The translations under genes were made by a program, and so were the position numbers. From assembly GCF_039522665.1 (NCBI RefSeq), contig NZ_BAAADV010000008.1:62001-126000 (forward strand): a DNA stretch of 64,000 nucleotides, in the 5' to 3' direction. The DNA comes from Natronoarchaeum mannanilyticum (GTDB lineage: Archaea > Halobacteriota > Halobacteria > Halobacteriales > Natronoarchaeaceae). Below the pieces are notes generated by a model. That model was not told the DNA's origin, ran no database searches, and saw nothing but the letters and a program-made list of their open reading frames with translations. Positions within the stretch are counted from its first letter, which is position 1. Each line of letters begins with the position of its first letter. This document shows, in pieces, positions 3,985-36,856 of this stretch.

Positions 3985-3998
3985 GGCGTGTCTATTGT

Positions 3999-4012
3999 TC
4001 ACTTTTGAGTGA
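3999..4012. promoter_or_regulatory. inverted repeat between TATA box and start of dgoD
   Basis: TCACT and AGTGA arms flank TTTG, lying between an AT-rich TATA-like box (about 4017-4026) and the dgoD start, where a repressor would block initiation. The partner regulator is not known. The IclR protein encoded at 12339 in the same locus is a plausible candidate. Confidence 0.4.
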
Positions 4013-4123
4013 CGGGTTTAATTTTGTTCGGTATCATTTACCGGTCGACAGCCGGGGCCTCGCGACCCCCGGATCTGACGGGACGAGTCCGTTCAGCGCG
4101 TGACGGGCTGCTTTTCTCTCCCC

Positions 4124-6115: not shown

Positions 6116-6136
6116 ACCAGCTACGAGGCGGGCCAG

Positions 6137-6145
6137 AATTTAAAG
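6137..6145 (-). promoter_or_regulatory. TATA box of bgaH
   Basis: On the minus strand CTTTAAATT lies about 25 bases before the bgaH ATG, the normal haloarchaeal leaderless spacing. The beta-galactosidase can therefore be expressed independently of the transporter genes upstream. Confidence 0.55.
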
Positions 6146-6182
6146 GTTTCCATCGTCCCGCCGGAGGGGTGGAGAGGGCCGA

Positions 6183-7079: not shown

Positions 7080-7080
7080 G

Positions 7081-7995: not shown

Positions 7996-8002
7996 GTAAG
8001 GA

Positions 8003-9343
8003 TTAGATTTCGCTCTCCAGATCCTGCAGCGCTTCGTGGAACTGTTCGCCGGCGTCGTAGGGATCGGTCCGTCCGTACGCGACCTCCTGCATGTAGGTGT
8101 AGAACTCCTCGCGAACCGGTCCCCAGGTCACTTTCGCGAGCGCTCGACCGGTCGTGAAGATTTCGGTGAGCGGTTGCCAGTTCTCGTTTTCGATCGTCGA
8201 TTCGACGTCCTCGTGAACCGGTGTCATTGCCTTCCCCGCCGCCTCGGGATCCTGCGCCATCCCTTCGCTGAGTGTCTCCGGATGCGCGTACGCCTGGGCG
8301 GCGGCCTTGCCCTTCTCCAGTTGGTCGGAGTGGGTGTTGACCATGACCGGCTTGATTTCGAGGAACGTTCCCCTCGAGGCGCTCTCCGCATGCGCCGGAT
8401 GAGCGATCTGGGTCCTGTTGTTCAGGATGTCTTCTGCCGTATCGCCGCTCTGGATGTTCTCACCGGTCGTCCAGTTCCGCATCCAGGTACCGCTCTCGAC
8501 GAACGCGTAGTTCCCGTTGATGTACCCCGGATCGTTCGTCTGCCAACCGGTCCCCAGATCGTCCGGATCGCCGACGGGATTGTCCGCCGCGTAGATTTGG
8601 TAGTACCAGTTGTCGAAGACCTGCCCAAGCGCGTCGGCGCCGATGTTGAGCTGCCAGCCCTCGCCGTCCGGCACGTACAGCTGGTCCGTGTGCTGGTAAA
8701 TGTGGGTCATCCACTCCTGGAACGAGCGGGTGCCGCCGTCCTGCGTGCAGTTGTGGAATCCGACCACGTCGTCGTACTCCTCGTTGACCATCCGACCGAT
8801 TTCGTGGAGTTCCGCGGCCGTCTCCGGCACGTCCTGCCCGAGCTCGTCGAGGATGTCCTGACGGACGAACAGCGCTCTCGCGTTGCCCTCGTAGGGCAGT
8901 CCGTACAGCGTGTCCTGGTAAGTCACAGCCTCGACGGCGCTGTCGATGTACCCGTCGAAGTAATCGAGATCCTCGGCGAGATCGTCGAGGGGCTCGAGGT
9001 GATTCCCCGCGATGTACTCGGTCAGATGGTTCAGCGTCCCCTCGATCGCGTCGGGGTCGCCGGTACTCGCCCCCGTGAGGAACTTCTGGCGGAGATCCTC
9101 GTAGGCGTAGCGACTGATCTGGAGCTCTCCGTCAGCCAGCTCCTCGTACATCGACTCGAACTTGTTTCGCCACACCGGCTCGGCGCCCTCCGTGTTCGGG
9201 AAGCCGTACTCCCACATGAGCGCCTGATTACTGTTTCCGCCGCCGCGGAGTCCGTTACAACCGGCGAGCCCGGCCGTCGCGCCGACGCCGAGTGCCTTCA
9301 TGATCGACCGTCTGCTACGACCGCTACCAGTGGGTTCGTTCAT
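8003..9343 (-). CDS. sugar-binding lipoprotein of ABC importer (family 1 solute-binding protein)
   Basis: Captures the sugar outside the cell and delivers it to the permeases. The N-terminus has a twin-arginine motif (RRSIMK), a hydrophobic stretch and a lipobox (LAGC, Cys29), so it is a Tat-exported lipoprotein as usual in haloarchaea. The mature part has the two-lobe features of the UgpB/MalE class, including a long acidic surface and GMAQDPEAAGKAMTPV near the C-terminus. At 446 residues it is of normal size. It heads the permease operon, and the ATPase gene lies 85 bases upstream on the same strand. Confidence 0.92.
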   Translation of the reverse strand: MNEPTGSGRSRRSIMKALGVGATAGLAGCNGLRGGGNSNQALMWEYGFPNTEGAEPVWRNKFESMYEELADGELQISRYAYEDLRQKFLTGASTGDPDAIEGTLNHLTEYIAGNHLEPLDDLAEDLDYFDGYIDSAVEAVTYQDTLYGLPYEGNARALFVRQDILDELGQDVPETAAELHEIGRMVNEEYDDVVGFHNCTQDGGTRSFQEWMTHIYQHTDQLYVPDGEGWQLNIGADALGQVFDNWYYQIYAADNPVGDPDDLGTGWQTNDPGYINGNYAFVESGTWMRNWTTGENIQSGDTAEDILNNRTQIAHPAHAESASRGTFLEIKPVMVNTHSDQLEKGKAAAQAYAHPETLSEGMAQDPEAAGKAMTPVHEDVESTIENENWQPLTEIFTTGRALAKVTWGPVREEFYTYMQEVAYGRTDPYDAGEQFHEALQDLESEI

Positions 9344-9428
9344 ATTTAATCCTCGATTTCTGGATTTACTCCGATACTATTTATATCTTTCCCAGGGCGT
9401 CCCGGATATCCGGGGACGAACGCGGCGA

Positions 9429-10604
9429 TCATTCCGCCTCGACGTCGTTCGCGCTCTGGAACCCGGGAAGCGAGTCGACGTCGTCGTCGGCCGGACGAGA
9501 GCGGTTGCGGAGCGCCTCGCCCGTCTGTTCGTCGAAGACGTGGATGCGATCCTGGGGGAACTGAATCCGCAACGGCCGGCCGGGATCGATGACGAGGTCG
9601 CCTTCGAGGGTCGTCGTGTACTGTTGGCCGCCGATGTCCAGGTAGACGTACGTCACCTCCCCGAGCGGTTCGGTGACCTCGACGGAGGTGCTGATCGAGT
9701 TGCGATCGTCGGCCTCGGCCAGCTCGATATCTTCCGGACGGATCCCGAGCGTGAACCGGTCGCCGCGCCCTTCGATGTCCGCGTAGACGTCCTCGTCGAG
9801 TTCGTAGGTGAACCCCTCGTGGACGAACGCGGGCGTCCCGTCCGCGGCGTCCAGTTCGACGTCGAAGAAGTTCATGCTCGGCGAACCGATGAAGCCGGCG
9901 ACGAACTCGTTTTTCGGCTCGTGGTAGCACTCCAGGGGCGTCCCGATCTGCTGGAGTTCGCCGTTGTTGAGGATCGCGATCCGATCGGACATCGTCATCG
10001 CCTCGGTCTGATCGTGGGTGACGTACAGCGTCGTTACGCCGAGATCCTGCTGAAGCGCCTGAAGTTCGGTCCGCATCTGCGTCCGGAGCTTGGCGTCGAG
10101 ATTCGAGAGCGGTTCGTCCATCAGGAACACCTCTGGCTCCCGAACGATTGCCCGCCCGAGCGCGACGCGCTGTTGCTGACCGCCGGAGAGATCGCCCGGT
10201 TTCTTCCCCAGCAGATCGGAGATGCCCAGCATTTCCGCCGTCTCCTCGACCCGCGACCGGATTTCGTCTTTCGGCAGGTCGGTCGCCATCTTCAGCCCGA
10301 ACTCCATGTTCTCGCGAGTGGTCATGTGCGGGTACAGCGCGTAGGACTGGAACACCATGGCCATGTCCCGCTCTTTGGGCTTCTGGTCGGTCACGGCCGT
10401 CCCGTCGAGGACGATCTCGCCGCTGGTGGGGGACTCCAGCCCCGCGACGCACCGGAGCGTCGTCGACTTGCCACAGCCCGACGGGCCGACGAGAACGATC
10501 AGTTCTCCGTCTTCGATGCCGATGTCGAGGTCGTCGACGGCGACGATGTCGCCGCCGTCGTCGTTGAACACCTTGGTCAGGTTCTTTATCTCTAGCTCTC
10601 CCAT
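9429..10604 (-). CDS. sugar ABC importer ATPase, MalK/UgpC type
   Basis: Powers the importer encoded just downstream. The nucleotide-binding domain has Walker A GPSGCGKST (40-48), the Q-loop in VFQSYALYPHMT, signature LSGGQQQR (139-146), Walker B VFLMDEP (159-165) and switch His in VTHDQTEAM. A TOBE/OB-fold regulatory domain follows (about 235-391), as in MalK, UgpC and MsmX. Length, 391 residues, is normal. A TATA-like stretch (AATAAAGACATAAG on the minus strand, about 10629-10646) lies upstream in the divergent gap shared with the GH4 gene. Confidence 0.93.
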   Translation of the reverse strand: MGELEIKNLTKVFNDDGGDIVAVDDLDIGIEDGELIVLVGPSGCGKSTTLRCVAGLESPTSGEIVLDGTAVTDQKPKERDMAMVFQSYALYPHMTTRENMEFGLKMATDLPKDEIRSRVEETAEMLGISDLLGKKPGDLSGGQQQRVALGRAIVREPEVFLMDEPLSNLDAKLRTQMRTELQALQQDLGVTTLYVTHDQTEAMTMSDRIAILNNGELQQIGTPLECYHEPKNEFVAGFIGSPSMNFFDVELDAADGTPAFVHEGFTYELDEDVYADIEGRGDRFTLGIRPEDIELAEADDRNSISTSVEVTEPLGEVTYVYLDIGGQQYTTTLEGDLVIDPGRPLRIQFPQDRIHVFDEQTGEALRNRSRPADDDVDSLPGFQSANDVEAE

Positions 10605-10717
10605 GCAAGGGTACTCTTGGCACCACCACTTATGTCTTTATTATCCTCAACATTCTCGACCGGGGTCTAATCGGGAGGTAAACCGGTCAAGCTCCGCGCC
10701 CGCTGACAGGTGAGGAA

Positions 10718-10727
10718 GATTTATTAC
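10718..10727 (+). promoter_or_regulatory. TATA box of the GH4 alpha-galactosidase gene
   Basis: A TTTATTAC-like box is centred about 27 bases before the ATG, giving a leaderless transcript. It shares a 145-base divergent region with the ATPase gene on the other strand, so one regulator could control both. Confidence 0.5.
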
Positions 10728-10749
10728 TATCTGTTCACGACTCTTTTGC

Positions 10750-12102
10750 ATGCCAACGATCGCGTTTATCGGAGCCGGTAGTATGGTGTTCGCGACGAAC
10801 CTGATCGGTGACATTCTCTCGTACGAGGCGCTGGCCGACAGCGAGATACGGCTGATGGACATCGACGAACACAGGCTCGAACAGACCACCGAGGTCGCGG
10901 AGGCGATGGTCGACAACGAGGATCTCGACGCCGCCATCGAATCCACGACCGATCGCCGGGAGGCGCTCGACGGCGCCGATTACGTCCTCAACATGATCAA
11001 CGTCGGCGGGACGGAGCCGTTCGAAAACGAGATCCGGATCCCCGAAAAGTACGGGATCGAACAGGCTATCGGCGACACGACGGGACCGGGCGGCGTCTTC
11101 CGCGGGCTGCGGACGATCCCCGAGATGCTCGATATCGCTCGCGACATGGAGGAGCTCTGCCCCGACGCGCTGCTGATGAACTACACGAATCCGATGGCGA
11201 TCGTCTGCAAGGCCGTCTACGAGGCGACCGACATCGAAGTTGTCGGGCTGTGCCATTCGGTTCCCCACACCGTCGAGGCGATCGCCGAGTACGTCGACGT
11301 TCCGACGGACGAACTCGACTACTGGGTGGCGGGCATCAACCACATGGCGTTTTTCCTCGAAGCGGAACACGACGGGGAGTCGGTGTATCCCCAGCTCCGG
11401 GAGGCGTACCACGACGAGGAAACGTATCGAAAGGATACGGTTCGGTTCGAGATGCTGCGCCACTTCGGCCTGTTCCCGACCGAATCCAGCCACCACATGA
11501 GCGAGTACGTGCCGTACTTCCGCACCGACGAGGACGTCGTCGAGGAGCTGACGGGCACCGATTACGCAGAGCGGATGGCGACGGCGACGTACCTCGAGGG
11601 TTGGAAGGAACGATCCGCCGAACGGGACAGCTCCGAACTCGACGTGGACCTCGACGAGGTCGGAGTCGATCGCTCCGAGGAGTACGCGGCGCGGTTGATC
11701 CACTCGCTGGAAACCGGCACCCCCCGACGGTTCAACCTCAACGTCCGCAACGACGACGGCGCGATCACCAACCTGCCGAACGACGCGTGCGTCGAGGTCC
11801 CCGTCTTCGCCGACGGCTCCGGGCTCCACCGGTGTTCAGTCGGCGAGCTACCCACGGCGGTCGCGGCGCTCGATCAGCAACACACCGCGGTCTACGAGCT
11901 CGCCGTCGAGGGGGCGCTCGAAGGGGATCGCTCGAAAGTCCACAAGGCGATCAAGCTCGATCCGCTCTCCTCGGCGGCCTGTACCCTCGAGGAGCTCCAC
12001 GAGATGACCGAGGAACTGATCGAGGCAAATCGGGAGTACCTCCCTGCCTTGGAATTCCCCGAGAGCGAGCGCACCGCGATTCCGACCACCGCTGACGATT
12101 GA
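10750..12102 (+). CDS. melA: GH4 alpha-galactosidase, MelA type
   Basis: An NAD- and metal-dependent glycosidase of family GH4, which works by oxidation and elimination rather than by two carboxylates. The N-terminal Rossmann fold shows FIGAGSMVF (6-14) and the acidic strand end LMDID. The metal site is formed by Cys168-His169 (GLCHSV) and the Asn197-His198 pair of GINHM. In GH4 the CHS version of this loop is typical of alpha-galactosidases, as opposed to CN or CD loops of phospho-glycosidases. The 450 residues are of normal length, and no signal peptide is present. It diverges from the importer operon and fits intracellular hydrolysis of alpha-galactosides. Confidence 0.87.
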   Translation: MPTIAFIGAGSMVFATNLIGDILSYEALADSEIRLMDIDEHRLEQTTEVAEAMVDNEDLDAAIESTTDRREALDGADYVLNMINVGGTEPFENEIRIPEKYGIEQAIGDTTGPGGVFRGLRTIPEMLDIARDMEELCPDALLMNYTNPMAIVCKAVYEATDIEVVGLCHSVPHTVEAIAEYVDVPTDELDYWVAGINHMAFFLEAEHDGESVYPQLREAYHDEETYRKDTVRFEMLRHFGLFPTESSHHMSEYVPYFRTDEDVVEELTGTDYAERMATATYLEGWKERSAERDSSELDVDLDEVGVDRSEEYAARLIHSLETGTPRRFNLNVRNDDGAITNLPNDACVEVPVFADGSGLHRCSVGELPTAVAALDQQHTAVYELAVEGALEGDRSKVHKAIKLDPLSSAACTLEELHEMTEELIEANREYLPALEFPESERTAIPTTADD

Positions 12103-16447: not shown

Positions 16448-17230
16448 TCAGTAATGTCTGGACTGGAGTTCGATCACGTTCGCGGTGTTCCGAAGTTCGG
16501 GAAGCAGCTCTTCCTCGATCCGTTCTGCGCCGAATCGGTGTTTCGGGCCAGCGATCGAGATCGCGGAGTTTCCCGACCCCGATCCGTTGCCAGCGATGGG
16601 GACGGCGACGGACTTGATCCCAGTAACCCGTTCCTCGTCTTCGATAGCGTATCCCCGCGTCCGTATCTCGGCAACTTCCTCGAGCAGTTCGTCGAGCTCG
16701 GTGATGGTGTTTTCCGTCGCGGTAGGAAGTCCGTGCCGCTTGACGATAGTCTGGACCTCCTCGTCGGTGTGCTGTGCAAGGAGGACTTTCCCCACAGCGG
16801 TCCAGTGCATCTCGGTGAATTCGCCGGTCGGCGCGTTGTCCGAGACGCCTTCGACGGGCTCAGACCGATAGACGAGTACGCGCATCCCGTCTTCCTCGTA
16901 GCCGATGGTCCCCACTTCGCCCGTCGTCTGTGAGAGCGTATCGACTTCCGATCGCGCCGCTTGGTAGATACTGCGATTGTGACGAACGAGTCCACCGAGC
17001 TCAAGAAATCGCATACTGAGCCGGTACCGGCCGTTTTCCTTGACCACGTACCCGAGTTCTTCGAGCGTCTTGAGGTAGACGTGAGCGGTGCTCTTTGGGA
17101 TGTCGAGGGTGTCCGCCAGCTCGGAGACTCCGCACTGTTCTAGTTCCTGCATTCGTTCAATAATCGTGAACGCGTTTTCCACCGCGTTAATCCGGTTCCC
17201 CGTTTCCGTACCGTTCTCATCCTTGCCCAT
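16448..17230 (-). CDS. IclR-family transcriptional regulator
   Basis: A 260-residue IclR protein: winged helix near residues 18-75 (VSELADTLDIPKSTAHVYLKTLEELGYV) and the effector domain after it (TTGEVGTIGYEEDGMRVLVYRS through AISIAGPKHRFG). The ATG at 17230 was chosen because upstream in-frame codons precede the usual N-terminus of the family. It sits between the fructuronate-reductase-like gene and a divergent MFS carrier. Two copies of one inverted repeat flank it, at 16379-16393 and 17288-17302, which suits control of itself and its neighbours. Confidence 0.92.
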   Translation of the reverse strand: MGKDENGTETGNRINAVENAFTIIERMQELEQCGVSELADTLDIPKSTAHVYLKTLEELGYVVKENGRYRLSMRFLELGGLVRHNRSIYQAARSEVDTLSQTTGEVGTIGYEEDGMRVLVYRSEPVEGVSDNAPTGEFTEMHWTAVGKVLLAQHTDEEVQTIVKRHGLPTATENTITELDELLEEVAEIRTRGYAIEDEERVTGIKSVAVPIAGNGSGSGNSAISIAGPKHRFGAERIEEELLPELRNTANVIELQSRHY

Positions 17231-17741
17231 GATAATTAATACGCCCATCACCAGTTAACGATATCTTATTTTTGTTGGCACATTTCGTCCAATAGTATTG
17301 AACGAGGTCGCAGTTAGGGTGCAACGTCGGATACGCGGGGGTTAAAACTAGACAGGCAGCGGTCACTGCATCTGCTCTCCGAGGCGGTTCTAAACGGTCA
17401 ATTTCGAGCGTACAATTGTCAGTACGGCCGTCGAAGGATTCATTATCAACTCTGCTATTCAAACTTATCCAAGCGGCTTCGAAGCCTTTCCGTAGTTTTA
17501 TTATGATGAGTGATGAACGACCCGCTGTACCATGAACGAAGATGACGGTGTTCCGAGACACCGGTATATCCAACCAACCGGACAGTCGGTTCCAAATGCT
17601 CCCGTGGCCGGGGGATCGAGAGTAGTTGCTTTCGTCAGCGAGGCGTCGATTGGTCGGGGCGACAACGACGAGACGGACAGTAACTGCCAGTTCGGCAACC
17701 GATCGAAAAATCGGTTCATGTGCCAGTCTAGCTAACTAACG
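17231..17741. other. 510-base divergent promoter region between IclR and MFS genes
   Basis: This gap holds the inverted repeat at 17288-17302 close to the IclR start. A 67-codon open frame on the plus strand at 17532-17735 has no haloarchaeal acidity and no family match, so I leave it out. The rest should carry promoters of both genes. I see nothing else in it. Confidence 0.55.
17288..17302. promoter_or_regulatory. operator-like inverted repeat, copy 2
   Basis: TCCAATAGTATTGAA lies about 58 bases before the IclR start at 17230 and in the divergent region shared with the MFS gene. It shares 12 of 15 positions with the repeat at 16379-16393, so both may be sites for the same regulator. Confidence 0.45.
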
Positions 17742-19834: not shown

Positions 19835-20794
19835 ATGGTTCGCCCAGCGCTAGTGCTGCCGCCAGAGCCCGACGAACGGTGGGAACTGGCAAAGCAGATG
19901 GGAGTTAGAGACGCCGTCATCCACCCCCTGGAGATCGGCGACGACAAGACCAACTGGACGTTCGACGAGCTTCGAGGGCTCAAGAACTGGCTCGAAGCTG
20001 ACGGCCTCGAATTTTCCGTTATCGAGGGCAGCGTCCCGTTGACCGACCGCGTCCGGCTCGGACTGGAGGGCCGCGACGAGGACATCGCGGAGTTCAAGCA
20101 GTTCGTCCGGGACTGCGGTGAACTCGGCATCTCGACGATTTGCTACGACTGGATGGGCGGCGTCCGGTGGGCCCGTACCGAAGCGCACAACGAGGCTCGG
20201 GGCGGCTCGCTGGTGACCGGCTACGACAACGCGAAGATGCAGGGTGGGCCGACCGTCCCCGCCTCCGAACAGTCCCGGGAGGACATCTTCTCGGCGCTGG
20301 CGTACTTCCTCGAGGAGGTCGTCCCCGTCGCCGAAGAAGCGGGCGTCAAGCTGGGACTGCATCCCGACGACCCGCCCCGCGAATCCGTCCGTGGCGTCCC
20401 CAGAATCGCCAACAGCGTCGAGAACTACGAGCGGATCCTGAACGTCGTCGACAGCGAGCACAACGGCGTGACGTTCTGCCAGGGCAACTTCGCGGCGATG
20501 GGCGCCGACGTCCCGGCCGCGATCCGCCGGTTCGGCGAGAAGATCAACTTCGTCCACTTCCGCGACGTCGAGGGCGACGCCGACGAGTTCGTGGAGACCT
20601 GGCACGACAACGGTCCGACCGACATGCACGCGGCGATGGCAGCCTATCAAGAGGCGGTCGGTCCCGACGTCGTGATGCGGCCGGACCACGTCCCGACGAT
20701 GGCCGGCGAGGACAACTCCAACCCGGGCTACCACACGAAGGGGCGGATGTTCGCGATCGGGTACATGCGAGGTCTCCTCGAATCGGTCGAGTAA
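19835..20794 (+). CDS. uxuA: mannonate dehydratase
   Basis: Dehydrates D-mannonate to 2-keto-3-deoxygluconate, third step of the isomerase route of glucuronate breakdown. The 319-residue TIM-barrel protein has the UxuA landmarks in order: CYDWMGGVRWARTEA, LGLHPDDPP, the Cys-containing FCQGNFAAMG, FVHFRDVEG and RPDHVPTM near the C-terminus. The His, Cys, His and Asp residues in these motifs match the metal site of the family. A second family member at 35777 differs in the first motif, so this copy is the better candidate for true mannonate dehydratase. Neighbours encode uronate-route enzymes and glucuronidase. Confidence 0.92.
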   Translation: MVRPALVLPPEPDERWELAKQMGVRDAVIHPLEIGDDKTNWTFDELRGLKNWLEADGLEFSVIEGSVPLTDRVRLGLEGRDEDIAEFKQFVRDCGELGISTICYDWMGGVRWARTEAHNEARGGSLVTGYDNAKMQGGPTVPASEQSREDIFSALAYFLEEVVPVAEEAGVKLGLHPDDPPRESVRGVPRIANSVENYERILNVVDSEHNGVTFCQGNFAAMGADVPAAIRRFGEKINFVHFRDVEGDADEFVETWHDNGPTDMHAAMAAYQEAVGPDVVMRPDHVPTMAGEDNSNPGYHTKGRMFAIGYMRGLLESVE

Positions 20795-20975: not shown

Positions 20976-22772
20976 TTAGAGTTCCTCGGACTCGTAGAAC
21001 TCCCGGAGGACGTGGAACGCCTGCTTCTTGCGACCGTGCTGGTCGACGACGCCCTTCCGGTTGTACCCACGCTGGTACTCGTTCTGTCGCATCGGCGCGC
21101 GGAAATCGAAGAGGATCCACGGCGACATGCCGGCGATTTGGTCGTTGGTGCTGGCGCCTTCGATCTGGCCGCGGTAGATCTCGGCCTGGAACTCCTCGGT
21201 CCAGCGGTCCTCCTCGCTCCCGTGGTTGCCCCACTTGGCGCCACCGCCCGTCTCGGAGATGACGATCGGCGTCCCGTCGGACTCTTCCTGGAGCCCCTGA
21301 AGGTCGTCCGCATCGCCGTAGTACCAGCCGTAGTACTCGTTGACGCCGACGACGTCGAGGTGTTCCTCGAGGGGGTCCTGCAGGACGATCCCGTCGTCGG
21401 TTTCGTCGACGAAACAGGCCGCGGTCACGAGGCGCGTGTCGTCGAGGTCGCGGACGTAGTCGGCCATTTCGGGAAGCACTTCGTTCCGCGTCTCGTCGTT
21501 GTGGTCGGTCTCGTTGGCGATCGACCACAGTGCAACGGAGGCGCGGTTCCAGTCGCGCTGGATCAGCTCGCGGAGCTGCTGGCGGTACAGCTCCTGAATC
21601 TCCTCGTCGCCGAAGTTGATGTCCCAGTAGGCCGGGACCTCTTCCCACAGGAGGATCCCCTCCTCGTCGGCCGTTCGGGCCATCTCTTCGGTGTGGGGAT
21701 AGTGTGCAAGCCGCGCGAAGTTACAGCCCAGCTCGTTGATCCACTGGAAGCGCGTCTGCACGTCTTCGGTGTCGAGCGCGCGTCCCTTGCCGGCAGCTTC
21801 TTCGTGGAGCGCGATCCCGCGGAGCCACACCGTCTCGCCGTTGACCAGCACGTCGCTCCCCTGAACGTCGATCTCGCGCAGTCCGACGCGATCGGTGATG
21901 GCGTCCTCGCCGTAGGTGACCTCGACGTCGTACAGCCGCGGGCTCTCGGGGCTCCACAGCGTCACGTCGTCTCGGTCGATCGTGAACTCGGCGCTGAGGC
22001 GGCCGTCGCCGTCGGACGCGAGCGGCTCGTCGACGCCGAGCTCCGGGAGCGCGACCGAGCCGTCGGCACCCGTCTCGGGGCCGTCGATCCAGGCGTCGAC
22101 CTGCACGTTGACCGAGTCGTCAGCGAGCGAGGTCTCGACCTTGAAGTTCCGGAGGTGCGATTCGGGGACCGAGACGAGATCGACCGAGCGGTTGATGCCG
22201 CCGAAGTTGTACCAGTCGGTGCTCTCGTTCGGAATCCCGTCCTCGTAGCGGCTGTTGTCCATCCGGACGACGATGACGTTCTCGCCGTCTTCGAGTTCGT
22301 CGGTGATCTCAAAGCTGAAAGGCGTGTAGCCGCCTTCGTGGTCGCCGAGGCGCTCGCCGTTGAGCCAGACTTCGGCCTTGTAGTTGACGGCGCCGAAGCG
22401 CAGGAAGGTGCGGTCGTCCTCGTCGAATTCGGCTCTGTCGAACGTCCGGGCGAACCAGACCCAGCCCTCGAAGTGGCGGAACTCGGGAATCTCCTCGCCC
22501 CAGCTGGCGGGCAGATCGACCGAGTAGCCGTCGTAGATGTTGAAGTCGGTGATGTCGTCGTCGCCCGAGGCGCTGGGCTCGTAGATCGACTCGAAACTCA
22601 GCGCCGGCTGCCCCTCCTCGTCGTTGCCATCGTCGGGGAGCGCTGCCGACTCGCCATCGTCGTCTTCGACGAAGTCGTCGAAGTAGTCCCGAAACATCTC
22701 GTACTGGTCGGGAATCGCCTGCCAGGTGCCGTCGAGCGAGTGGCTGTCTCGCGGATACTCTAACAGTTGCAT
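20976..22772 (-). CDS. GH2 beta-glucuronidase (intact tandem copy)
   Basis: Releases glucuronic acid from beta-glucuronides inside the cell; no signal peptide is present. The 598 residues carry the GH2 sugar-binding jelly-roll (about 10-205), an immunoglobulin-like domain (about 206-300) and a TIM barrel (about 301-598). The acid/base is Glu421 in WSIANETD and the nucleophile Glu507 in VISETGGG. Asn571-Arg-Lys573 (YNRKG) is the NxK motif that in GH2 glucuronidases holds the substrate carboxylate, separating them from GH2 beta-galactosidases. The second of two adjacent ATGs (22772) was chosen by similarity to UidA-type starts. A TATA box sits about 26 bases upstream. A near-identical broken copy follows at 22929-24716. 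Confidence 0.9.
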   Translation of the reverse strand: MQLLEYPRDSHSLDGTWQAIPDQYEMFRDYFDDFVEDDDGESAALPDDGNDEEGQPALSFESIYEPSASGDDDITDFNIYDGYSVDLPASWGEEIPEFRHFEGWVWFARTFDRAEFDEDDRTFLRFGAVNYKAEVWLNGERLGDHEGGYTPFSFEITDELEDGENVIVVRMDNSRYEDGIPNESTDWYNFGGINRSVDLVSVPESHLRNFKVETSLADDSVNVQVDAWIDGPETGADGSVALPELGVDEPLASDGDGRLSAEFTIDRDDVTLWSPESPRLYDVEVTYGEDAITDRVGLREIDVQGSDVLVNGETVWLRGIALHEEAAGKGRALDTEDVQTRFQWINELGCNFARLAHYPHTEEMARTADEEGILLWEEVPAYWDINFGDEEIQELYRQQLRELIQRDWNRASVALWSIANETDHNDETRNEVLPEMADYVRDLDDTRLVTAACFVDETDDGIVLQDPLEEHLDVVGVNEYYGWYYGDADDLQGLQEESDGTPIVISETGGGAKWGNHGSEEDRWTEEFQAEIYRGQIEGASTNDQIAGMSPWILFDFRAPMRQNEYQRGYNRKGVVDQHGRKKQAFHVLREFYESEEL

Positions 22773-22797
22773 CATTACTGGTATTCCGTGACACGGC

Positions 22798-22810
22798 ATA
22801 AAAATATACT
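22798..22810 (-). promoter_or_regulatory. TATA region of the intact GH2 gene
   Basis: AGTATATTTTTAT on the minus strand lies about 26 bases before the start. The same arrangement, with a few changes, precedes the broken copy at 24741-24753, so the duplication included the promoter. Confidence 0.5.
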
Positions 22811-22928
22811 GAATTACTGCGCCGGGTATCGGTGCACAACGATTCATATCGGGGTTCGGTCGGCGGTGTCGCGATACGGCGAACCGTCGCCCGACTGGCT
22901 GGCGAGGAGAACTCCAATCCCGGCTGCG

Positions 22929-24716
22929 TCAGAGTTCTTCGGACTCGTAGAACTCCCGGAGGACGTGGAACGCCTGCTTCTTGCGACCCCGCTGGTCGAC
23001 GACGCCCTTCCGGTTGTACCCGCGCTGGTACTCGCTCTGGCGTAGCGGCGCGCGGAAATCGAAGAGGATCCACGGCGACATGCCGGCGATCTGGTCGATC
23101 TCGCTGAGGGCCTTGGTCTGGCCGCGGTAGATCTCGGCCTGGAACTCCTCGGTCCAGCGGTCCTCCTCGCTCCCGTGGTTGCCCCACTTGGCGCCGCCGC
23201 CTGTCTCGGAGACGACCACCGGCGTTCCGTCGGGATTGTCCTGGAAGTGTTCCATGTCGTCGGCGTCGCCGTAGTACCATCCGAAGTACTCGTTAATGCC
23301 GATCACGTCGAGGTGCTCCTCGAGGGGGTCCTGCAGGACGATCCCGTCGTCGGTTTCGTCGACGAAACAGGCCGCGGTCACGAGGCGCGTATCGTCGAGG
23401 TCGCGAACGTAGTCGGCCATCTCGGGAAGGACCTCGTTTCGGGTCTCGTCCGTGTGATCGGTCTCGTTGGCGATCGACCACAGCACGACCGACGCGCGGT
23501 TCCAGTCGCGCTGGATCAGTTCTCGGAGTTGCTGGCGGTACAACTTCTGGACCTCTTCGTCACCGAAGTTGATGTTGTGGTACGGCGGGATCTCTTCCCA
23601 CAGGAGGATCCCCTCTTCGTCCGCCCGCCGGGCCATCTTCTCGGTGTGAGGGTAGTGAGCGAACCGCGCGTAGTTACAGCCCAGCTCGTCGATCCACTGG
23701 AAGCGCGTGTCGACGTCCTAATCGTCGAGCGCGCGCCCCTTGCCGTCGGCTTCCTCGTGGAGTGCGATGCCGCGAAGCTCCACCGCCTCGCCGTTGACCA
23801 GCACGTCGCTCCCCTGAACGTCGATCTCGCGGAGGCCGACGCGGTCGGTGACGGCGTCCTCGCCGTACGTAACCTCGACGTCGTACAGCTTCGGATCTTC
23901 GGGGCTCCACAGCGTCACGTCGTCTCGATCGATCGTGAACTCGGCGCTGAGGCGACCGTCGCCGTCGGACGCGAGCGGCTCGTCGACGCCGAACTCCGGG
24001 AGCGCGACCGAGCTGTCGGCACCCGTCTCGGGCCCGTCAAGCCAGGCGTCGACGCGGATGTCGACGTCGTCACCCGCGATCGAGGTCTCGATCTTGAAGT
24101 TCCGGAGATACGACTCAGGGACCGAGACGAGATCGACTGAGCGGTTGATGCCGCCGAAGTTGTACCAGTCGGTGAACTCGTCAGGGATGCCGTCCTCGTA
24201 GCGCTGGTTGTCCATCCGGACGACGATGACGTTCTCGCTGTCTTCGAGTTCGTCGGTGATCTCAAAGCTGAAAGGCGTGTAGCCGCCTTCGTGGTCGCCG
24301 AGGTGCTCGCCGTTGAGCCAGACTTCGGCCTTGTAGTTGACGGCGCCGAAGCGCAGGAAGGTGCGGTCGTCCTCGTCGAATTCGGCTCTGTCGAACGTCC
24401 GGGCGAACCAGACCCAGCCCTCGAAGTGGCGGAACTCGGGGATCTCCTCGCCCCAGCTTGCGGGCAGATCGACCGAGTAGCCGTCGTAGATGTTGAAGTC
24501 GGTCATGTCGTCGCTGGCCGAGGCGCTGGGCTCGTAGATCGGCTCGAGGCTCATCGCTGGCTGCCCGTCCTCGTCGGGGAGTCCTGTCACGTCCCCATCG
24601 TCGTCTTCGTCGGAGATGGCTTCGAGGGGGTCTCGAAACCTCTCGTACTGGTCGGGAATCGCCTGCCAGGTGCTGTCGAGCGAGTAGCTGTCTCGCGGAT
24701 GCTCTAACAGTTACAT
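22929..24716 (-). pseudogene. GH2 beta-glucuronidase, tandem copy broken by two in-frame stops
   Basis: This copy matches the intact GH2 gene at 20976-22772 over its full length and stays in one frame. Codon 2 is TAA where the intact gene has CAA, directly after the ATG at 24716. A second stop, TAG at 23718-23720 (codon 333), lies where the intact copy has an Asp-Thr-Glu-Asp stretch. Both catalytic glutamates (WSIANETD, VVSETGGG) and the NxK motif (YNRKG) remain, and there are no frameshifts, so inactivation looks recent. Translation from an internal GTG at 24590 or ATG at 23636 could give fragments only. Its promoter-like upstream DNA is also copied. Confidence 0.88.
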
Positions 24717-24740
24717 CGTACTGGTATACAATGACATTAT

Positions 24741-24753
24741 ATAAAAAGATACT
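24741..24753 (-). promoter_or_regulatory. TATA region of the broken GH2 copy
   Basis: AGTATCTTTTTAT on the minus strand lies 25 bases before the ATG of the pseudogene and aligns with the promoter of the intact copy. Confidence 0.45.
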
Positions 24754-24860
24754 GAACAATAGCATCGAACCCCGACGCGTGATGACCGGGAACGTACGCG
24801 TTGAGTGTGCTTACAGCCCGTGCCGGTTCGACCGGCGGAAGAAGTACGCCCCGCGTTCCG

Positions 24861-26021
<1,161 letters not shown>

Positions 26022-26052
26022 TGTATCCTGTGAGTAGTTGGTTTCGTACGTG

Positions 26053-26976
26053 TCATCCTTTGAGCGATCCCGAGGAGAGGCCGCTGACGATCCGGCGCTG
26101 GGCGAACAGCACGAGCAGCGCGACCGGGATGACGCCGACGAGGCTCGCCGCCGCCATCAGGTCGTAGCGGATCGCAACCTGTGACTGATAGCTCGTCAGC
26201 CCCCAGACTAGCGGCGACCAGTCTTCGGCCGCGCCGGTCGTCATCAGCTGGGAGAAGAAGAACTCGTTGTACGCGGTAATGAAAGTCAGGACCCCCGCCG
26301 TGACCAGTCCCGGTGCCGAGAGTGGCGCGATGACGCGATACAGCGCGCCGATCCGCGTCGACCCCGTGACCCGCGCCGCATCCTCGAGCCCGTCCGGAAT
26401 CTGGCTGTAGAACGTGGTTAACAGTAGGACTGCGAAGGGGAGCGCCAGCGACGTGATGGGGAGTCCGGCGGCTGCGGGCGTGTTGAACAGGTTCGGACTG
26501 CTGATGCCCATGACCGTCACGTTCCCCGTGAGTAGCTTGAACAGCCCGACGAGGAACGTCGCGCCGGGGAAGTACGAGATCGCGACGATCGCGAGGAACA
26601 GCGGCTGTCGACCGCGGAACTCCATGCGGCCGAACACGTAGCCGGCGAAGCTCCCCACGAAGAGCACGAACACCGTGACCGAGCTGGCGATAAAGAGGCT
26701 GTTGAAGATGAACCGATGGAGCGGGATCACCTGGAAGATCTCGACGAACGAGGACGGGTCGAACCCCGCCGGCAACAGCCCGGCCTCAGTCGTCCTGCCG
26801 TTCGGCGTGAGCGCCACGACGATCATGTAGTAGAACGGGAACAGGGCGATCAAAAGAACGATCGCCGTCGCGACCCGGAACAGGTTCCTGTAGAACGATT
26901 CGGACTCGGTGAGGCTGTAGGACACCCACCGCTGGGCGAGCGATCCGTCGTCGGAGGATTGGGATTTCGTTGCCAT
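26053..26976 (-). CDS. sugar ABC importer permease, MalG type (second system)
   Basis: A 307-residue permease with about six membrane helices and an EAA loop (LEDAARVTGSTRIGALYRVIAPLSAPGL). The ATG at 26976 was chosen because it lies one base after the stop of the upstream permease, as in the first importer. It forms a unit with the genes on both sides. The polar N-terminus is cytoplasmic. Confidence 0.92.
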   Translation of the reverse strand: MATKSQSSDDGSLAQRWVSYSLTESESFYRNLFRVATAIVLLIALFPFYYMIVVALTPNGRTTEAGLLPAGFDPSSFVEIFQVIPLHRFIFNSLFIASSVTVFVLFVGSFAGYVFGRMEFRGRQPLFLAIVAISYFPGATFLVGLFKLLTGNVTVMGISSPNLFNTPAAAGLPITSLALPFAVLLLTTFYSQIPDGLEDAARVTGSTRIGALYRVIAPLSAPGLVTAGVLTFITAYNEFFFSQLMTTGAAEDWSPLVWGLTSYQSQVAIRYDLMAAASLVGVIPVALLVLFAQRRIVSGLSSGSLKG

Positions 26977-26977
26977 G

Positions 26978-27973
26978 TTAGAGACCACCCGCGTTCGACC
27001 GGCTGAACTTGACGAGGTAGAGCATCGAGACGAGCCCGATCAGCGCCGCCGTAATCGCCGCCAGCGCGGATGCGGTGCCGTACAGGCTGCCGTTGAACGT
27101 CCCGACGACCGCACAGGTCAGCGACGGGACGGTGCTGCAGTTGCTGATGGCGTCGATCTGACCGTACACTCGCATCGATCCGATCGACGACAGCAGCATC
27201 GCGACGAGCAACAGCGGCATCACCTGCGGCAGCGTGATGAGGCGGAACTGCTCCCAGCGCGACGCGCCGGCGACGTCGCCGACGTCGTAGAGCCGCTGAT
27301 CGATGCTCTGTAGCCCCGAGAGCACGATCAGCGCGACGAACGCCGAGCGCTTCCAGATCGCCGAAAGCGCGACGACGCCCATCGCCGGCGCGCTGTTGTT
27401 GAGCGGACGCGTTCCGATCAGCCCGAGGTCGTTGAAGATCTGCGTTCCGAGCCCCGCATCGGGGATGAACAGCAGGTAGAAGATCATCCCCTGAACGACG
27501 ATCGGGACGGCCCACGGGAGCAAGACGGCCACCCGGACGATCGACCGCCCTCGGAACGCCTTGTTGAGGATCAGCGCCTGGATCAGACCCAGGGCGGTGA
27601 CCAGTACGACGGTCACGACCGTGTAGATCATCGTGACCGGAAGAATGCTCTGGAACGGCTTACTCAGGTCGAGGAACGGTCGAATCAACAGCGCGTCGCG
27701 CTGCCCGGTCAGCAGCTCGACGTAGTTCTGGAGGCCGACGAACTCCCCTCTGAACTGCGAGAAGCTGTCGGCGAACAGCGACGTCTCCAACGTGAACACT
27801 ACTGGCCACGCCGCCAGTACGCCGAAGACCAGGAGCACCGGCAGTAGCACGAAGTACGCGAACCCGGTGTCGGAGAGGTTCTCGATCCAGTCGTTGAACC
27901 TCGCTCCGCCGGCCCGCAGCGGCGCCGGAACCCTGCTTGCGGAGCGCGGAGCGCGTGTCTCGTTGCTAGGCAT
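26978..27973 (-). CDS. sugar ABC importer permease, MalF type (second system)
   Basis: A 331-residue permease with about six membrane helices and the EAA-type loop (YDVGDVAGASRWEQFRLITLPQVMPLL). In this loop the usual E-A-A is replaced by D-V-G-D-V-A, yet the downstream Gly is kept. Its start overlaps the end of the binding-protein gene by eight bases, implying coupled translation. It pairs with the MalG-type subunit that follows. Confidence 0.91.
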   Translation of the reverse strand: MPSNETRAPRSASRVPAPLRAGGARFNDWIENLSDTGFAYFVLLPVLLVFGVLAAWPVVFTLETSLFADSFSQFRGEFVGLQNYVELLTGQRDALLIRPFLDLSKPFQSILPVTMIYTVVTVVLVTALGLIQALILNKAFRGRSIVRVAVLLPWAVPIVVQGMIFYLLFIPDAGLGTQIFNDLGLIGTRPLNNSAPAMGVVALSAIWKRSAFVALIVLSGLQSIDQRLYDVGDVAGASRWEQFRLITLPQVMPLLLVAMLLSSIGSMRVYGQIDAISNCSTVPSLTCAVVGTFNGSLYGTASALAAITAALIGLVSMLYLVKFSRSNAGGL

Positions 27974-29414
27974 TTTGGTCTTCGATCTCCTGGAGCTGGC
28001 TTTTCAGATCGCTCATCCCGCTCTCGGGCGTCTTGCTCTGGGAGACGACGTTGTGGACTTCCTGGGCGATGATATCCGACTGCTGGAAGTAGATCGGCGT
28101 GACGGGCCGCGGGATCGCGTTGTCCGCGGCGACGGACATCGCGTCCATGTACTGGCCGAACATCTCGTGTTGCGCGGCGCGATCCGACGACAGGAGCGAC
28201 GGTTTCGGCGGTAGCGTCCCCGAGAGCTCGTACCAGTTCATGTGGAACTCGTCGGTCATCACTGTCCGAAGCACTTCGAGCGCCGTATCGATCTTGTTCG
28301 AGTTCGGATTGATCGAGAGGTTGTACCCGGCCAGGGGTGACATCGTCCCGCCGATGCTGTCGTACTGGGACTCCGATTCCGGCACGCCGTAGGGGTACGG
28401 CATGATGCCGAGCTTCTCGTTGACCTGATCGCCGAAGTTTTGTTCACTCGCACCGAGCCGAACGAAGGCCGGACTGCCGACCGAATACGCGAAGGCATCG
28501 CCGTTCAGGAACGACTCCATGTCGGACGTGTACCGCCATCCCAGCGAGTCCGGCGGAACGATTCCGCCCGTGTACGTCGACTCGTCGAGCGAGTGCTCGT
28601 CGTCGTGCCCGTGGAAGAACGTCCGGAGCATCCGAAGCGCGTTCAACACGGGCTCCTCGTCGACGGTGACGGGCCGGTCGCCGATCGGTCCGAAGAGGTT
28701 TTCGCGACCGCCGAAGTACGCGCCACCCCACTGGGACATCATCCCGTTGAACGCACAGCAGGTGATCGTCTGGGAGAGCTCGAACGGCATCGTCATCCCG
28801 TAGTCGAGGCCCTGCGAGTCGCGCACGTCGGCGATTATCTGGGACGCCTCCCCCCACGACATCGGCTCGGATCCCCAGTTGCTGCCCTCGGGATCGTACC
28901 CGGCCGACTCGGCCAGGTCCTTCCGGTACAGGAGCCCGCGGACGTCGAACATGAACGGCACGCCGTAGATGTTGCCGTCCCGACCGCGGCTCGAATTGAC
29001 GCTCGGGCCGTTGTAATCGTTCTCCAGCGTGTCGATTTCGCTCTCGTCGAGATGGTCGTTGAGGTTGAGCAGCTGCCCGCGGCGGATGAACGGAATCGAC
29101 CACCCGACGTCCATCAGCAGGATGTCGGGCTCGCTACGCCCCGCGTTGAGCCACTGCCGGTACTGGGTTTCGAGTTGCCCCGGCGTCGCGGTGTTGATCT
29201 CGATGTCGATGTCTTCTGAGAGACCGGCCTCCTTGAGCGTCGGTTCGAGCTGTTGGCGAACCGACTCGGGCGTCTGGGTGTGTAGCGTCATCTGCAGCGG
29301 TCCGTCGCTGCCACTACCGCCGCCTCCCAGACAGCCTGCGATCGACGTCGTCAGTCCTGCACCACCGGCCGCTTTCAAAATCTGGCGTCTCCGCACACTG
29401 TTGTGGCTTGTCAT
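27966..29414 (-). CDS. sugar-binding lipoprotein of ABC importer (second system)
   Basis: A family 1 solute-binding protein of 482 residues. A Tat motif (RRRQILK), hydrophobic segment and lipobox (IAGC) at the N-terminus mark it as an exported lipoprotein, followed by a Gly/Ser linker. A TATA-like AATAAATA (about 29443-29450) precedes it by roughly 30 bases, so it heads the order binding protein, MalF, MalG, ATPase. The nearby glucuronidase and uronate enzymes suggest that it binds glucuronides or oligosaccharides containing uronic acid; this is inference from context. Confidence 0.91.
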   Translation of the reverse strand: MTSHNSVRRRQILKAAGGAGLTTSIAGCLGGGGSGSDGPLQMTLHTQTPESVRQQLEPTLKEAGLSEDIDIEINTATPGQLETQYRQWLNAGRSEPDILLMDVGWSIPFIRRGQLLNLNDHLDESEIDTLENDYNGPSVNSSRGRDGNIYGVPFMFDVRGLLYRKDLAESAGYDPEGSNWGSEPMSWGEASQIIADVRDSQGLDYGMTMPFELSQTITCCAFNGMMSQWGGAYFGGRENLFGPIGDRPVTVDEEPVLNALRMLRTFFHGHDDEHSLDESTYTGGIVPPDSLGWRYTSDMESFLNGDAFAYSVGSPAFVRLGASEQNFGDQVNEKLGIMPYPYGVPESESQYDSIGGTMSPLAGYNLSINPNSNKIDTALEVLRTVMTDEFHMNWYELSGTLPPKPSLLSSDRAAQHEMFGQYMDAMSVAADNAIPRPVTPIYFQQSDIIAQEVHNVVSQSKTPESGMSDLKSQLQEIEDQNA

Positions 29415-29556: not shown

Positions 29557-30921
29557 CTAGAACTCGTACAGTGAACGAGGACGATCGTACGCCAGATGCG
29601 TCGCGAGCTGTTTCGCGTGGTCCATCGGCATCCGACGTTGCTCGACCATCTCGCCGAGGACGTTCGCGAGCACTCGCCGGAACATCTCGAAGCGCGAGCC
29701 GTAGGAGATCAGCTTCCGCGAGTCGCTGACCATCCCCGCATGGTTCGCGAGCAGGTCGACCGAGCCCATCTGGCGCAGCTGCTCGTCCATGCCGTAGGGA
29801 CTGTCGTTGAACCACCACGCTGGACCGACGCTCACGCTGGGGAACGCGCGCGACAGCGTCGTGAGCGTCGGGTAGTGCGTCGGGTCGACGGTGTAGAGGA
29901 TGATCTCCATGTCGCCGTCGAACTCGTTGAGGAAGTATCGCAGATTGTCGGCGAGTTCGATCGACTGCGTGGAGACGTCGCCGCCGGCGTCGGCGCCGAC
30001 CGTCTCGTAGAGCTCGTCGCGGTAATCGCGGACCGCGCCGATGTGAAGCTGCGTGACCCAGTCTTTCTCCCGGTTGAGCCGGCCGATCTCCTCGAGCAGG
30101 AACGCCTGGAAGTCGACGATCTCCGCTCGCGAGAGGTTTTCTCCGGCGAGCGCGGCGTCGTACACCTCTTCGGCCCGCTGTTCGCCGACCGGGCGGGTCA
30201 CGACCTCCTCGAGGCTCAGGTCGCACGCTCGGCAGCCGTGCTCGGCGAAGTGGTCGTGGGTGTCCTCGAGCGCGGAGAGATACCCCGAAAGGCTGGCCGT
30301 GTCGGTCCCGGTCGCCGCTTCGAGTTCGTCGACGAACTCTCTCCAGGACGGCTGATCGATCTTTAGCGCTCGATCGACGCGCCAGGTCGGGCGCGTGTCG
30401 ATGCCGTCGACGGCGTCCTCGGCCGTCTTGTGGTCGGCGAGATCCGACGTCGGATCGTCGGTCGTACAGAGGACTTCGACGTCCAGATCGTCCAGCAGCG
30501 ACTGAGGTTTCATGGACTGCTCCGAGAGCCGGGCCTTGGTCTCCTCCCAGATTTCTTCGCCCGTCTCGGCGGAGAGCGGCTTCTCGATGCCGAATCGGCG
30601 TCGGAGATCGAGTTGGATCCACTCGTAGGTGGGATTCCCGGCGAGCTCCGGGAACACCTCGGCGAGCGCCATCCACTTTTCCTTGTTCGAGGCGTCACCC
30701 GTGATCTTGCGTTCCGGCACGCCCCGCTTTCGCATCATCGACCAGACGTAGTGGTCCGTCGCTCCCTCCACTTCCCAGATGTCGTCCCACCCGTCGTTCT
30801 CGACGATTTCGGAGAGGTCGGCGTGGCTGTGGGGATCCACGACGGGGAGGGATTCGATCTCCGCGTACAGCGTTTTGGCTGCATCGGATTCGAGCAGATA
30901 CTCGTCGGCTTCGAAGGCCAT
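29557..30921 (-). CDS. uxaC: glucuronate isomerase
   Basis: Isomerises D-glucuronate to D-fructuronate, first step of the isomerase route. The 454 residues belong to the amidohydrolase-fold UxaC family: VDPHSHADL near the start (His31, His33), WEEFVDELEAATG-like mid segment, then YSGPAWWFNDSP-type motif (GPAWWFNDSPYGM) and the C-terminal GMVSDSRKLISYGSRFEMFRRVL. The ATG at 30921 matches the family start better than a frame start 27 bases earlier. The gene lies 140 bases upstream of nothing on its strand but just beyond the ABC importer promoter. With the SDR at 15334 and UxuA at 19835 the three-step route is complete. Confidence 0.94.
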   Translation of the reverse strand: MAFEADEYLLESDAAKTLYAEIESLPVVDPHSHADLSEIVENDGWDDIWEVEGATDHYVWSMMRKRGVPERKITGDASNKEKWMALAEVFPELAGNPTYEWIQLDLRRRFGIEKPLSAETGEEIWEETKARLSEQSMKPQSLLDDLDVEVLCTTDDPTSDLADHKTAEDAVDGIDTRPTWRVDRALKIDQPSWREFVDELEAATGTDTASLSGYLSALEDTHDHFAEHGCRACDLSLEEVVTRPVGEQRAEEVYDAALAGENLSRAEIVDFQAFLLEEIGRLNREKDWVTQLHIGAVRDYRDELYETVGADAGGDVSTQSIELADNLRYFLNEFDGDMEIILYTVDPTHYPTLTTLSRAFPSVSVGPAWWFNDSPYGMDEQLRQMGSVDLLANHAGMVSDSRKLISYGSRFEMFRRVLANVLGEMVEQRRMPMDHAKQLATHLAYDRPRSLYEF

Positions 30922-31083
30922 GTCTACTACTGCCCCGCGGTCGGACAAAAAACTACTGACTGCCTTCGAGTAACCGGTTGCGCCGGCGTTGAGAGGATCA
31001 CAAGTGACTCCGGGCAGGGACTACTCCAGTAGCCAGCGCTTGCTCGGCGTTCGGTTGAGCAGGGTGCTCTCGGACGGCTCGGT

Positions 31084-35776: not shown

Positions 35777-36856
35777 ATGCAACGAGAACGACCAGAGACT
35801 GACATAGACGAACTGCCGCTCCGCACCGGTCTTCGGACCCGGACGCTGTCCGACGAGCGTCTCGCGTTCTGCCGCCAGATCGGCGTCGAGGACATCTTCC
35901 TCGATCACCGCTCCCCGCGCGGCGACGTGTTCGAAGACGAAGGAAGCAACGACGACGAGACGATCACGATCGACGACGGCGTCGTGCCGAGCGTCTCCGA
36001 CCTCGTCCAGGCTCGTCGGCGCGCGGAGGACGCCGGGCTCCGACTGATGGGGATCCAGTCGTTGAGCTACAACGTCTACGGGAAGATTATGCTCGACAAG
36101 GAGGGCAAGGAGAGCCAACTCGAGACGATCAAACAGCTGATCCGGAACCTCGGACAGGCGGACATCCCGATCCTCGGCTACCAGTGGAACCCCCGGGGCG
36201 TCGTCCCGATGCGTACCTCGCAGACAGTTCGGCTGCGCGGCGGGGCTCGCGGGCGCGAGTTCGACATCGACGACCTCGACGCGCCGTACGACCCCGTCGA
36301 CGAGCTAGAACGAGAGTACACCGAGGAAGAGCTCTGGGAGAACTACGAGCAGTTCCTCGAGGAGGTACTTCCCGTCGCGGAGGACGCCGGCGTGCGGATG
36401 GCGCTCCACCCCGCCGATCCGCCGTCGGTCGAGCAACTGGGCGGGATCCCCCGCTTATTCCGGAATCGCGAGGCCTTCGAGCGAGCGATGGAGATCGTCC
36501 CGAGCGACAACCACGGGCTCAAGCTCTGCCTGGGGTGCTTCTCGGAGATGCCGGACGCCGACGTCAAGGACGTGATCGTCCACTTCGGCGGCAACGACGA
36601 CATCGTGTTCGTCCACTTCCGCGACGTGGTGGGCACCTGGCCGCGGTTCACCGAGACGTTCCTCGACGACGATCAAAGCAATTTCGACCCGAAAGTGGCG
36701 ATCGACAAACTCCGAGAGGTCGGGTTCGACGGCGTCGTCGTCCCGGATCACGTCCCCGACGTGGTCGGCGACACGGAGTGGGGCCACCGGTCGCGAGCCC
36801 ACGCGGTCGCCTATCTGAACGGACTCCTGGCGAGGACGGACGACGCATCCCGATAA
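35777..36856 (+). CDS. UxuA-family sugar-acid dehydratase paralogue, substrate uncertain
   Basis: A 359-residue homologue of mannonate dehydratase. It keeps MALHPADPP, LCLGCFSEM, FVHFRDVVG and VPDHVP, so the metal-binding His, Cys, His and Asp are all present. The segment that reads CYDWMGGVRWART in the other copy is here GYQWNPRGVVPMRT, and a highly charged insertion (about 53-70 and 155-185) is added. These changes affect the substrate pocket in the family. It lies between the DapA-type enzyme and the uronate-dehydrogenase-like gene, where the oxidative route needs an aldarate dehydratase. Whether it acts on glucarate, on mannonate or on something else cannot be settled from sequence. Confidence 0.85.
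   Translation: MQRERPETDIDELPLRTGLRTRTLSDERLAFCRQIGVEDIFLDHRSPRGDVFEDEGSNDDETITIDDGVVPSVSDLVQARRRAEDAGLRLMGIQSLSYNVYGKIMLDKEGKESQLETIKQLIRNLGQADIPILGYQWNPRGVVPMRTSQTVRLRGGARGREFDIDDLDAPYDPVDELEREYTEEELWENYEQFLEEVLPVAEDAGVRMALHPADPPSVEQLGGIPRLFRNREAFERAMEIVPSDNHGLKLCLGCFSEMPDADVKDVIVHFGGNDDIVFVHFRDVVGTWPRFTETFLDDDQSNFDPKVAIDKLREVGFDGVVVPDHVPDVVGDTEWGHRSRAHAVAYLNGLLARTDDASR

What the first reader, a model, noticed from the sequence alone, without database searches (positions are those of the whole stretch)
20976..24753. Tandem GH2 glucuronidase duplication including promoters, second copy killed by two stops
The copies align through promoter and coding region without frameshift. The second has TAA at codon 2 and TAG at codon 333, with all catalytic motifs kept. 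Two stops in an otherwise clean frame indicate recent loss, or in principle selection for silencing by a start-adjacent stop. The copy could also serve as donor for gene conversion.
Basis: seen in the sequence. Interest (0 to 1): 0.5.

Follow-up and report, generated by a model that had tools for sequence, protein, structure and literature searches.

The report
Decaying tandem copy of sugar-acid enzyme
A salt-loving archaeon carries two neighbouring copies of a gene for an enzyme that releases sugar acids, and one copy has been disabled by two stop codons; this is an ordinary pseudogene, with an informative history because a related locus in another archaeon has lost the same copy by deletion.

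Summary
Copy 1 (20976-22772, minus) is an intact 598-codon GH2 beta-hexuronidase. Copy 2 (22929-24716, minus) has TAA at codon 2 and TAG at codon 333, with no frameshift. Copy 2 is a pseudogene. Independently of the stops, its branch shows relaxed constraint: omega 0.11-0.15 against about 0.05 elsewhere, yet far below 1, so it was functional for most of its life and died late. (1) The duplication is older than this genome. The collinear locus in Natrinema salsiterrestre keeps copy 1 intact, but its copy 2 is a 76-codon stub fused at a 7-base microhomology to a stub of the neighbouring ABC transporter's binding-protein gene. The same copy was thus lost in both lineages, most simply independently. 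(2) In the window's lineage the copies exchanged sequence: a tract at about nt 234-512 of the coding region is nearly identical between them, against a different tree elsewhere. The donor is undetermined. (3) No relative searched carries an intact copy-2 ortholog; an apparently independent intact tandem pair exists in another genus. Selection for silencing is not excluded but has no support. This is ordinary duplicate-gene decay.

The parts
20976..22772 (-). Copy 1: intact GH2 beta-hexuronidase gene, 598 codons plus stop
   Evidence: Translation without internal stops; Pfam GH2 N, middle and TIM-barrel domains
22773..22822 (-). Copy 1 proximal promoter region (TATA-like TTTTTAT upstream of ATG; near-leaderless start inferred)
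   Evidence: Alignment with copy 2 and 13 relatives; leaderless start is inference
22929..24716 (-). Copy 2: GH2 pseudogene, 596 codons including the normal stop
   Evidence: Translation with stops at codons 2 and 333; relaxed constraint
24711..24713 (-). Premature TAA, codon 2 of copy 2
23718..23720 (-). Premature TAG, codon 333 of copy 2
24717..24766 (-). Copy 2 proximal promoter region, TATA-like element kept
   Evidence: 38 nt at 79% identity to copy 1 promoter; upstream alignment
22261..22539 (-). Gene-conversion tract in copy 1 (coding nt about 234-512), nearly identical to the matching part of copy 2
   Evidence: Segment with 25 of 27 informative sites grouping the copies, 0 of 20000 shuffles; tract tree
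24861..29414 (-). ABC transporter genes (ATPase, two permeases, solute-binding protein) upstream of copy 2; deleted together with copy 2 in Natrinema except for stubs
   Evidence: Pfam; Natrinema junction
29557..30948 (-). Glucuronate isomerase (UxaC) gene of the same cluster
   Evidence: PF02614, NF002794 above cut-off
19835..20794 (+). Mannonate dehydratase-like (UxuA) gene next to copy 1
   Evidence: PF03786; NF003027 above cut-off, TIGR00695 below its cut-off

Best explanation
A GH2 beta-hexuronidase gene in a haloarchaeal glucuronate-use cluster was duplicated in tandem, with about 50 bases of promoter, before the loci of this genome and Natrinema salsiterrestre separated. Both copies were long under purifying selection and occasionally exchanged sequence by gene conversion. 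Copy 2, next to the ABC transporter, then became dispensable: here by nonsense mutations at codons 2 and 333, in Natrinema by a deletion that removed most of copy 2 and of the transporter. Copy 1 continues to supply the enzyme. Shown: both stops, relaxed constraint, the older duplication, the Natrinema stub, the mosaic tract. Inferred: that copy 2 makes no active protein, that the two losses were independent, and that the enzyme acts on glucuronides.
For: Stops. Branch-specific omega for copy 2 against the rest: 0.144 vs 0.041 on 591 codons and 0.149 vs 0.052 on 441 codons outside nt 193-642; 0.106 vs 0.049 on 381 codons (nt 643-1794, 2dL 5.6) and 0.133 vs 0.047 on 493 codons (2dL 15.0); none of 4 control tip branches is raised to a like degree. 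Omega 1 for the whole branch is rejected (2dL 23-29 on the sets outside the tract). Copy 2 breaks 7 of 252 columns invariant in the other 16 proteins, copy 1 breaks none. Expected nonsense changes from the inferred neutral share of the branch: 0.6-1.4 against 2 seen. Natrinema stub and junction; the C-terminal tree pairs the stub with copy 2 at 92/86 and copy 1 with the Natrinema gene at 89/86. Copy 1 with the Natrinema gene 96/97 in the full tree, 100/98 for nt 643-1794. Mosaic tract: copies are sisters at 99/99. No PylS match over cut-off in the genome.
Against: No reads to confirm the stops. Omega of copy 2 is only moderately raised, and in the cleanest part (nt 643-1794) the 2dL is 5.6. 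The C-terminal tree rests on 228 columns. The AU test against copy 1 + Natrinema within the tract gives only p 0.0503, and the tract was chosen after looking. The losses could share an already dead ancestor: the Natrinema stub does not cover either stop.
Confidence: 0.88

Rival explanations
1. Sequencing or assembly error: copy 2 is intact in the organism.
For: No reads available; the genome is a 10-contig draft.
Against: Two separate substitutions outside homopolymers; the copies differ by 11%, so reads should not be confused except in the conversion tract, which holds neither stop; copy 2 shows relaxed constraint in its other codons.
Confidence: 0.06
2. Selected silencing: the start-adjacent stop was favoured because an extra dose of enzyme is harmful, or the transcribed AUG-UAA copy acts as RNA.
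For: Promoter with TATA-like element kept in copy 2; frame otherwise open; purifying selection on most of the branch.
Against: A second stop and changes at conserved residues fit plain decay; deletion of the same copy in Natrinema shows dispensability; most of the preserved frame is explained by time before death.
Confidence: 0.03
3. Copy 2 still yields useful fragments: a 290-codon N-terminal piece from an internal GTG and a 235-codon C-terminal piece from an internal ATG.
For: Both open frames exist and match GH2 domains.
Against: The C-terminal piece lacks the first part of the TIM barrel (Pfam positions 82-297 only); no promoter or start signal was shown for either; relaxed constraint.
Confidence: 0.02
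4. Duplication only in the window's lineage, after separation from Natrinema; fast decay of copy 2 makes the tree misleading.
For: Copy 1 and copy 2 are sisters in the tract.
Against: Natrinema has a copy-2-like stub at the same place (92.5% to copy 2, 86.4% to its own full copy), and the copies as sisters is rejected for nt 643-1794 (p-AU 0.0024).
Confidence: 0.06

Closest known systems
Tandem-duplicate pseudogenes of prokaryotes
   Same: A redundant neighbour copy with premature stops and raised omega while the other stays intact
   Different: Only in detail: loss of the same copy by two routes in two lineages, and a conversion tract shared with the live copy
GH2 beta-hexuronidases (beta-glucuronidase and beta-galacturonidase; PDB 6d89, 6d1n, 7vqm, 6ncy)
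   Same: Domain make-up, NxK motif and catalytic motifs
   Different: Haloarchaeal, with an acidic N-terminal linker; substrate untested; PRK10150 beta-glucuronidase model matched below its cut-off (262 against 544 bits)
Gene conversion in haloarchaea (Haloferax volcanii; PMC11276520, outline and abstract read)
   Same: Homologous sequences become equalised
   Different: That work concerns genome copies of one locus, here two tandem paralogs

Membership tests
Pseudogene (duplicated type) | Homology to a functional paralog along the gene | tested here: met
   89.1% aligned bases, full length
Pseudogene (duplicated type) | Disabling mutations | tested here: met
   TAA codon 2, TAG codon 333
Pseudogene (duplicated type) | Relaxed selective constraint | tested here: met
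   Omega 0.11-0.15 vs about 0.05; below 1 because averaged over the time before death (inference)
Pseudogene (duplicated type) | No functional product | not testable with these tools
   Needs proteomics or enzyme assay
GH2 beta-hexuronidase (copy 1) | GH2 N-terminal, middle and TIM-barrel domains | tested here: met
   PF02837, PF00703, PF02836 above cut-off
GH2 beta-hexuronidase (copy 1) | NxK motif that marks hexuronidases (PMC12243196, passages read) | tested here: met
   YNRKG from residue 570, aligned with NRKG of 6d89 and 6d1n
GH2 beta-hexuronidase (copy 1) | Catalytic glutamates | tested here: met
   ANETDH and SETGGGAKWG motifs present; their catalytic role is recalled and comes from no call
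GH2 beta-hexuronidase (copy 1) | Activity on beta-glucuronides or beta-galacturonides | not testable with these tools
   Context of UxaC and UxuA-like genes favours glucuronate
NCBIfam equivalog beta-glucuronidase PRK10150 | Score over curated cut-off | tested here: not met
   262 bits against 544

The most novel reading that the evidence does not exclude
Copy 2 is kept as a transcribed but untranslated AUG-UAA gene that serves as a sequence reservoir, repeatedly donating tracts to the live copy by gene conversion, so that the 'dead' gene still shapes the enzyme.
Probability: 0.03. Interest if true: 0.55.

Novelty: new member of a known kind. Interest (0 to 1): 0.22.

Why it matters
It is a clean example of how a tandem duplicate decays in haloarchaea: the same copy lost in two lineages by different routes, with conversion between a live and a dying copy. 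It cautions against counting copy 2 as an enzyme in annotation. It does not point to a new mechanism.

Tried and rejected
Pyrrolysine or other readthrough: the PylS model gave only two weak matches, none over cut-off, in the genome, and a stop at codon 2 would hardly be helped; rejected. Recent duplication private to this genome: rejected by the Natrinema stub and by nt 643-1794. Direction of conversion: within nt 193-486 there are 10 sites where the two copies share a state that differs from Natrinema and the outgroup, and 10 where Natrinema alone differs; rough expectations worked out by hand from the counts for nt 643-1794 fit both directions about equally, so it is left open. Intact copy-2 ortholog in relatives: not found (98 genomes; 391 drawn from a larger class; 125; 146; 9), nor (54 loci, genome collection); these sets overlap. 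The tandem pair of G113 (L079) was considered as the same duplication and rejected: its two copies are 68.8% identical in bases and fall in different places of the tree, though the deep placement of the first one is weakly supported. Viral contigs: no match. Literature: the searches showed no description of this duplicate; this covers only the open library searched, and only listings plus passages were read. Structure prediction was not run, as it would not decide anything here.

L090-L092 (found later) were not added.

Full report
What is there. The window lies in a haloarchaeal-type genome of 3.57 Mb in 10 contigs (G000:C8:62001-126000; 'haloarchaeal' is inferred from the relatives found). 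On the minus strand lie two tandem genes of glycoside hydrolase family 2. Copy 1, 20976-22772, reads through 598 codons and carries the three GH2 domains. Copy 2, 22929-24716, reads M-stop, then open to a TAG at codon 333, then open to the normal stop. Every other row in the codon alignment (16 of 16, copy 1 included) has a sense codon at both places. There is no frameshift; there are in-frame length differences in the acidic linker near codons 31-50.

Surroundings. Next to copy 1 is a UxuA-like gene; upstream of copy 2 are an ABC transporter (ATPase, two permeases, binding protein) and a glucuronate isomerase gene. Further out lie an aldehyde dehydrogenase that matches the haloarchaeal 2,5-dioxovalerate dehydrogenase model above its cut-off, a KdgD-like gene below its cut-off, and an IclR-type regulator at 16448-17251. 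The enzyme is thus most likely a beta-hexuronidase feeding a glucuronate pathway (inference). It has the NxK motif that separates hexuronidases from galactosidases (PMC12243196, passages). The nearest solved structures include both beta-glucuronidase-type and beta-galacturonidase entries, so the exact substrate is open.

Is copy 2 really decaying? Two premature stops alone could be an error. I therefore asked whether its other codons look relaxed. A codon model with a separate omega for copy 2, on six genes, gave 0.144 against 0.041 on all 591 codons, and 0.149 against 0.052 on 441 codons outside nt 193-642. In a re-run, nt 643-1794 (381 codons) gave 0.106 against 0.049 (2dL 5.6), and all but nt 193-486 (493 codons) gave 0.133 against 0.047 (2dL 15.0). 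The four control tip branches were at or below the background, the highest being 0.057 against 0.055. Omega 1 over the whole branch is rejected. If the excess is read as a final neutral period, that period is 6-9% of the branch, and 0.6 to 1.4 nonsense changes are expected in it; two are seen. Copy 2 differs at 7 of 252 columns that are invariant in the 16 other proteins; copy 1 at none, the Natrinema gene at one (two distant rows differ at more, 13 and 9, in the like count for each).

History. Among relatives, Natrinema salsiterrestre (L010) has a collinear cluster, at 81-89% DNA identity. It has an intact copy-1 ortholog at 7388-9169, and just upstream of it, where copy 2 stands in the window, a 228-base piece that encodes residues 523-598. 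That piece is 92.5% identical to copy 2, 89.0% to copy 1 and 86.4% to Natrinema's own full gene, and pairs with copy 2 in a 228-column tree at 92/86. It is joined directly to a piece of about 180-190 bases of the ABC binding-protein gene; the two parent sequences share CGCTGGA at the joint. So Natrinema once had the transporter and copy 2 in the window's order and lost most of both. In window coordinates the missing stretch between the two stubs corresponds to about 5.9 kb (worked out by hand). The duplication therefore predates the separation of the two loci. Copy 2 has been lost in both, most simply independently, although a shared early loss cannot be excluded because the stub covers neither stop.

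Conversion. Along the gene the tree changes. In nt 643-1794 copy 1 pairs with Natrinema (100/98) and a copy 1 + copy 2 clade is rejected (p-AU 0.0024). In nt 193-486 the two window copies pair at 99/99. The segment nt 234-512 holds 25 sites grouping the copies against 2 grouping copy 1 with Natrinema; 0 of 20000 shuffles of the 261 informative sites reach its score. The longest identical run between the copies is 136 bases, reached by 1 of 5000 codon shuffles. Against this: the AU test for the tract is only borderline (p 0.0503), nt 1-192 weakly groups the copies too (84/59), and the tract was picked after seeing the profile. Natrinema differs from copy 1 by about 9% inside the tract, so strong constraint alone does not explain the identity. 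The direction is not resolved.

Promoters and starts. Both copies, and most of the 13 relatives shown, keep a TATA-like element about 25-35 bases before the ATG (judged by eye). In Haloferax volcanii 72% of protein-coding transcripts are leaderless (PMC4983044, passages), so these genes are probably leaderless too (inference). On such a message the UAA would come directly after the first AUG. Copy 2 may still be transcribed; nothing here tests it.

Distribution. Matches to copy 1 at E 1e-150 or better occur in 15 of 391 genomes drawn from the class, 5 of 125 in Natrinema's family and 9 of 146 in the family of G386. In the window's own family only the window's genome matches, 1 of 9 at E 1e-100. 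This patchiness, and the near collinearity with a genome of another family, suggest transfer of the cluster between families (inference). Only one other tandem pair was seen among the 391: G113 (L079), both copies intact, 68.8% identical and apparently of separate origin.

Verdict. Confirmed observation; ordinary mechanism. Copy 2 is a late-dying tandem duplicate with a conversion tract, lost also in Natrinema by deletion.

Noticed in passing
L010:6815-7228: In Natrinema salsiterrestre a deletion with 7-base microhomology fused a stub of the ABC solute-binding protein gene to a stub of GH2 copy 2, leaving the cluster without this transporter.
   Followed up: yes
L079:6505-10244: A second, apparently independent tandem pair of intact GH2 genes at the same place beside the ABC transporter in another genus; the transporter-proximal copy again has the longer branch.
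   Followed up: partly
window 35777-36856: A second UxuA-like gene in the window, below NCBIfam mannonate dehydratase cut-offs.
   Followed up: no
window 2833-12102: A separate sugar cluster with a galactonate dehydratase gene (NF010624 above cut-off) and an alpha-galactosidase-like gene (NF011657 above cut-off), with another ABC transporter between them by reading of the ORFs.
   Followed up: no
L010:9434-10285: A 283-codon membrane-protein-like ORF between the GH2 and UxuA-like genes in Natrinema is missing at that place in the window; similar ORFs lie near the cluster in L011 and L079 (judged by eye).
   Followed up: no
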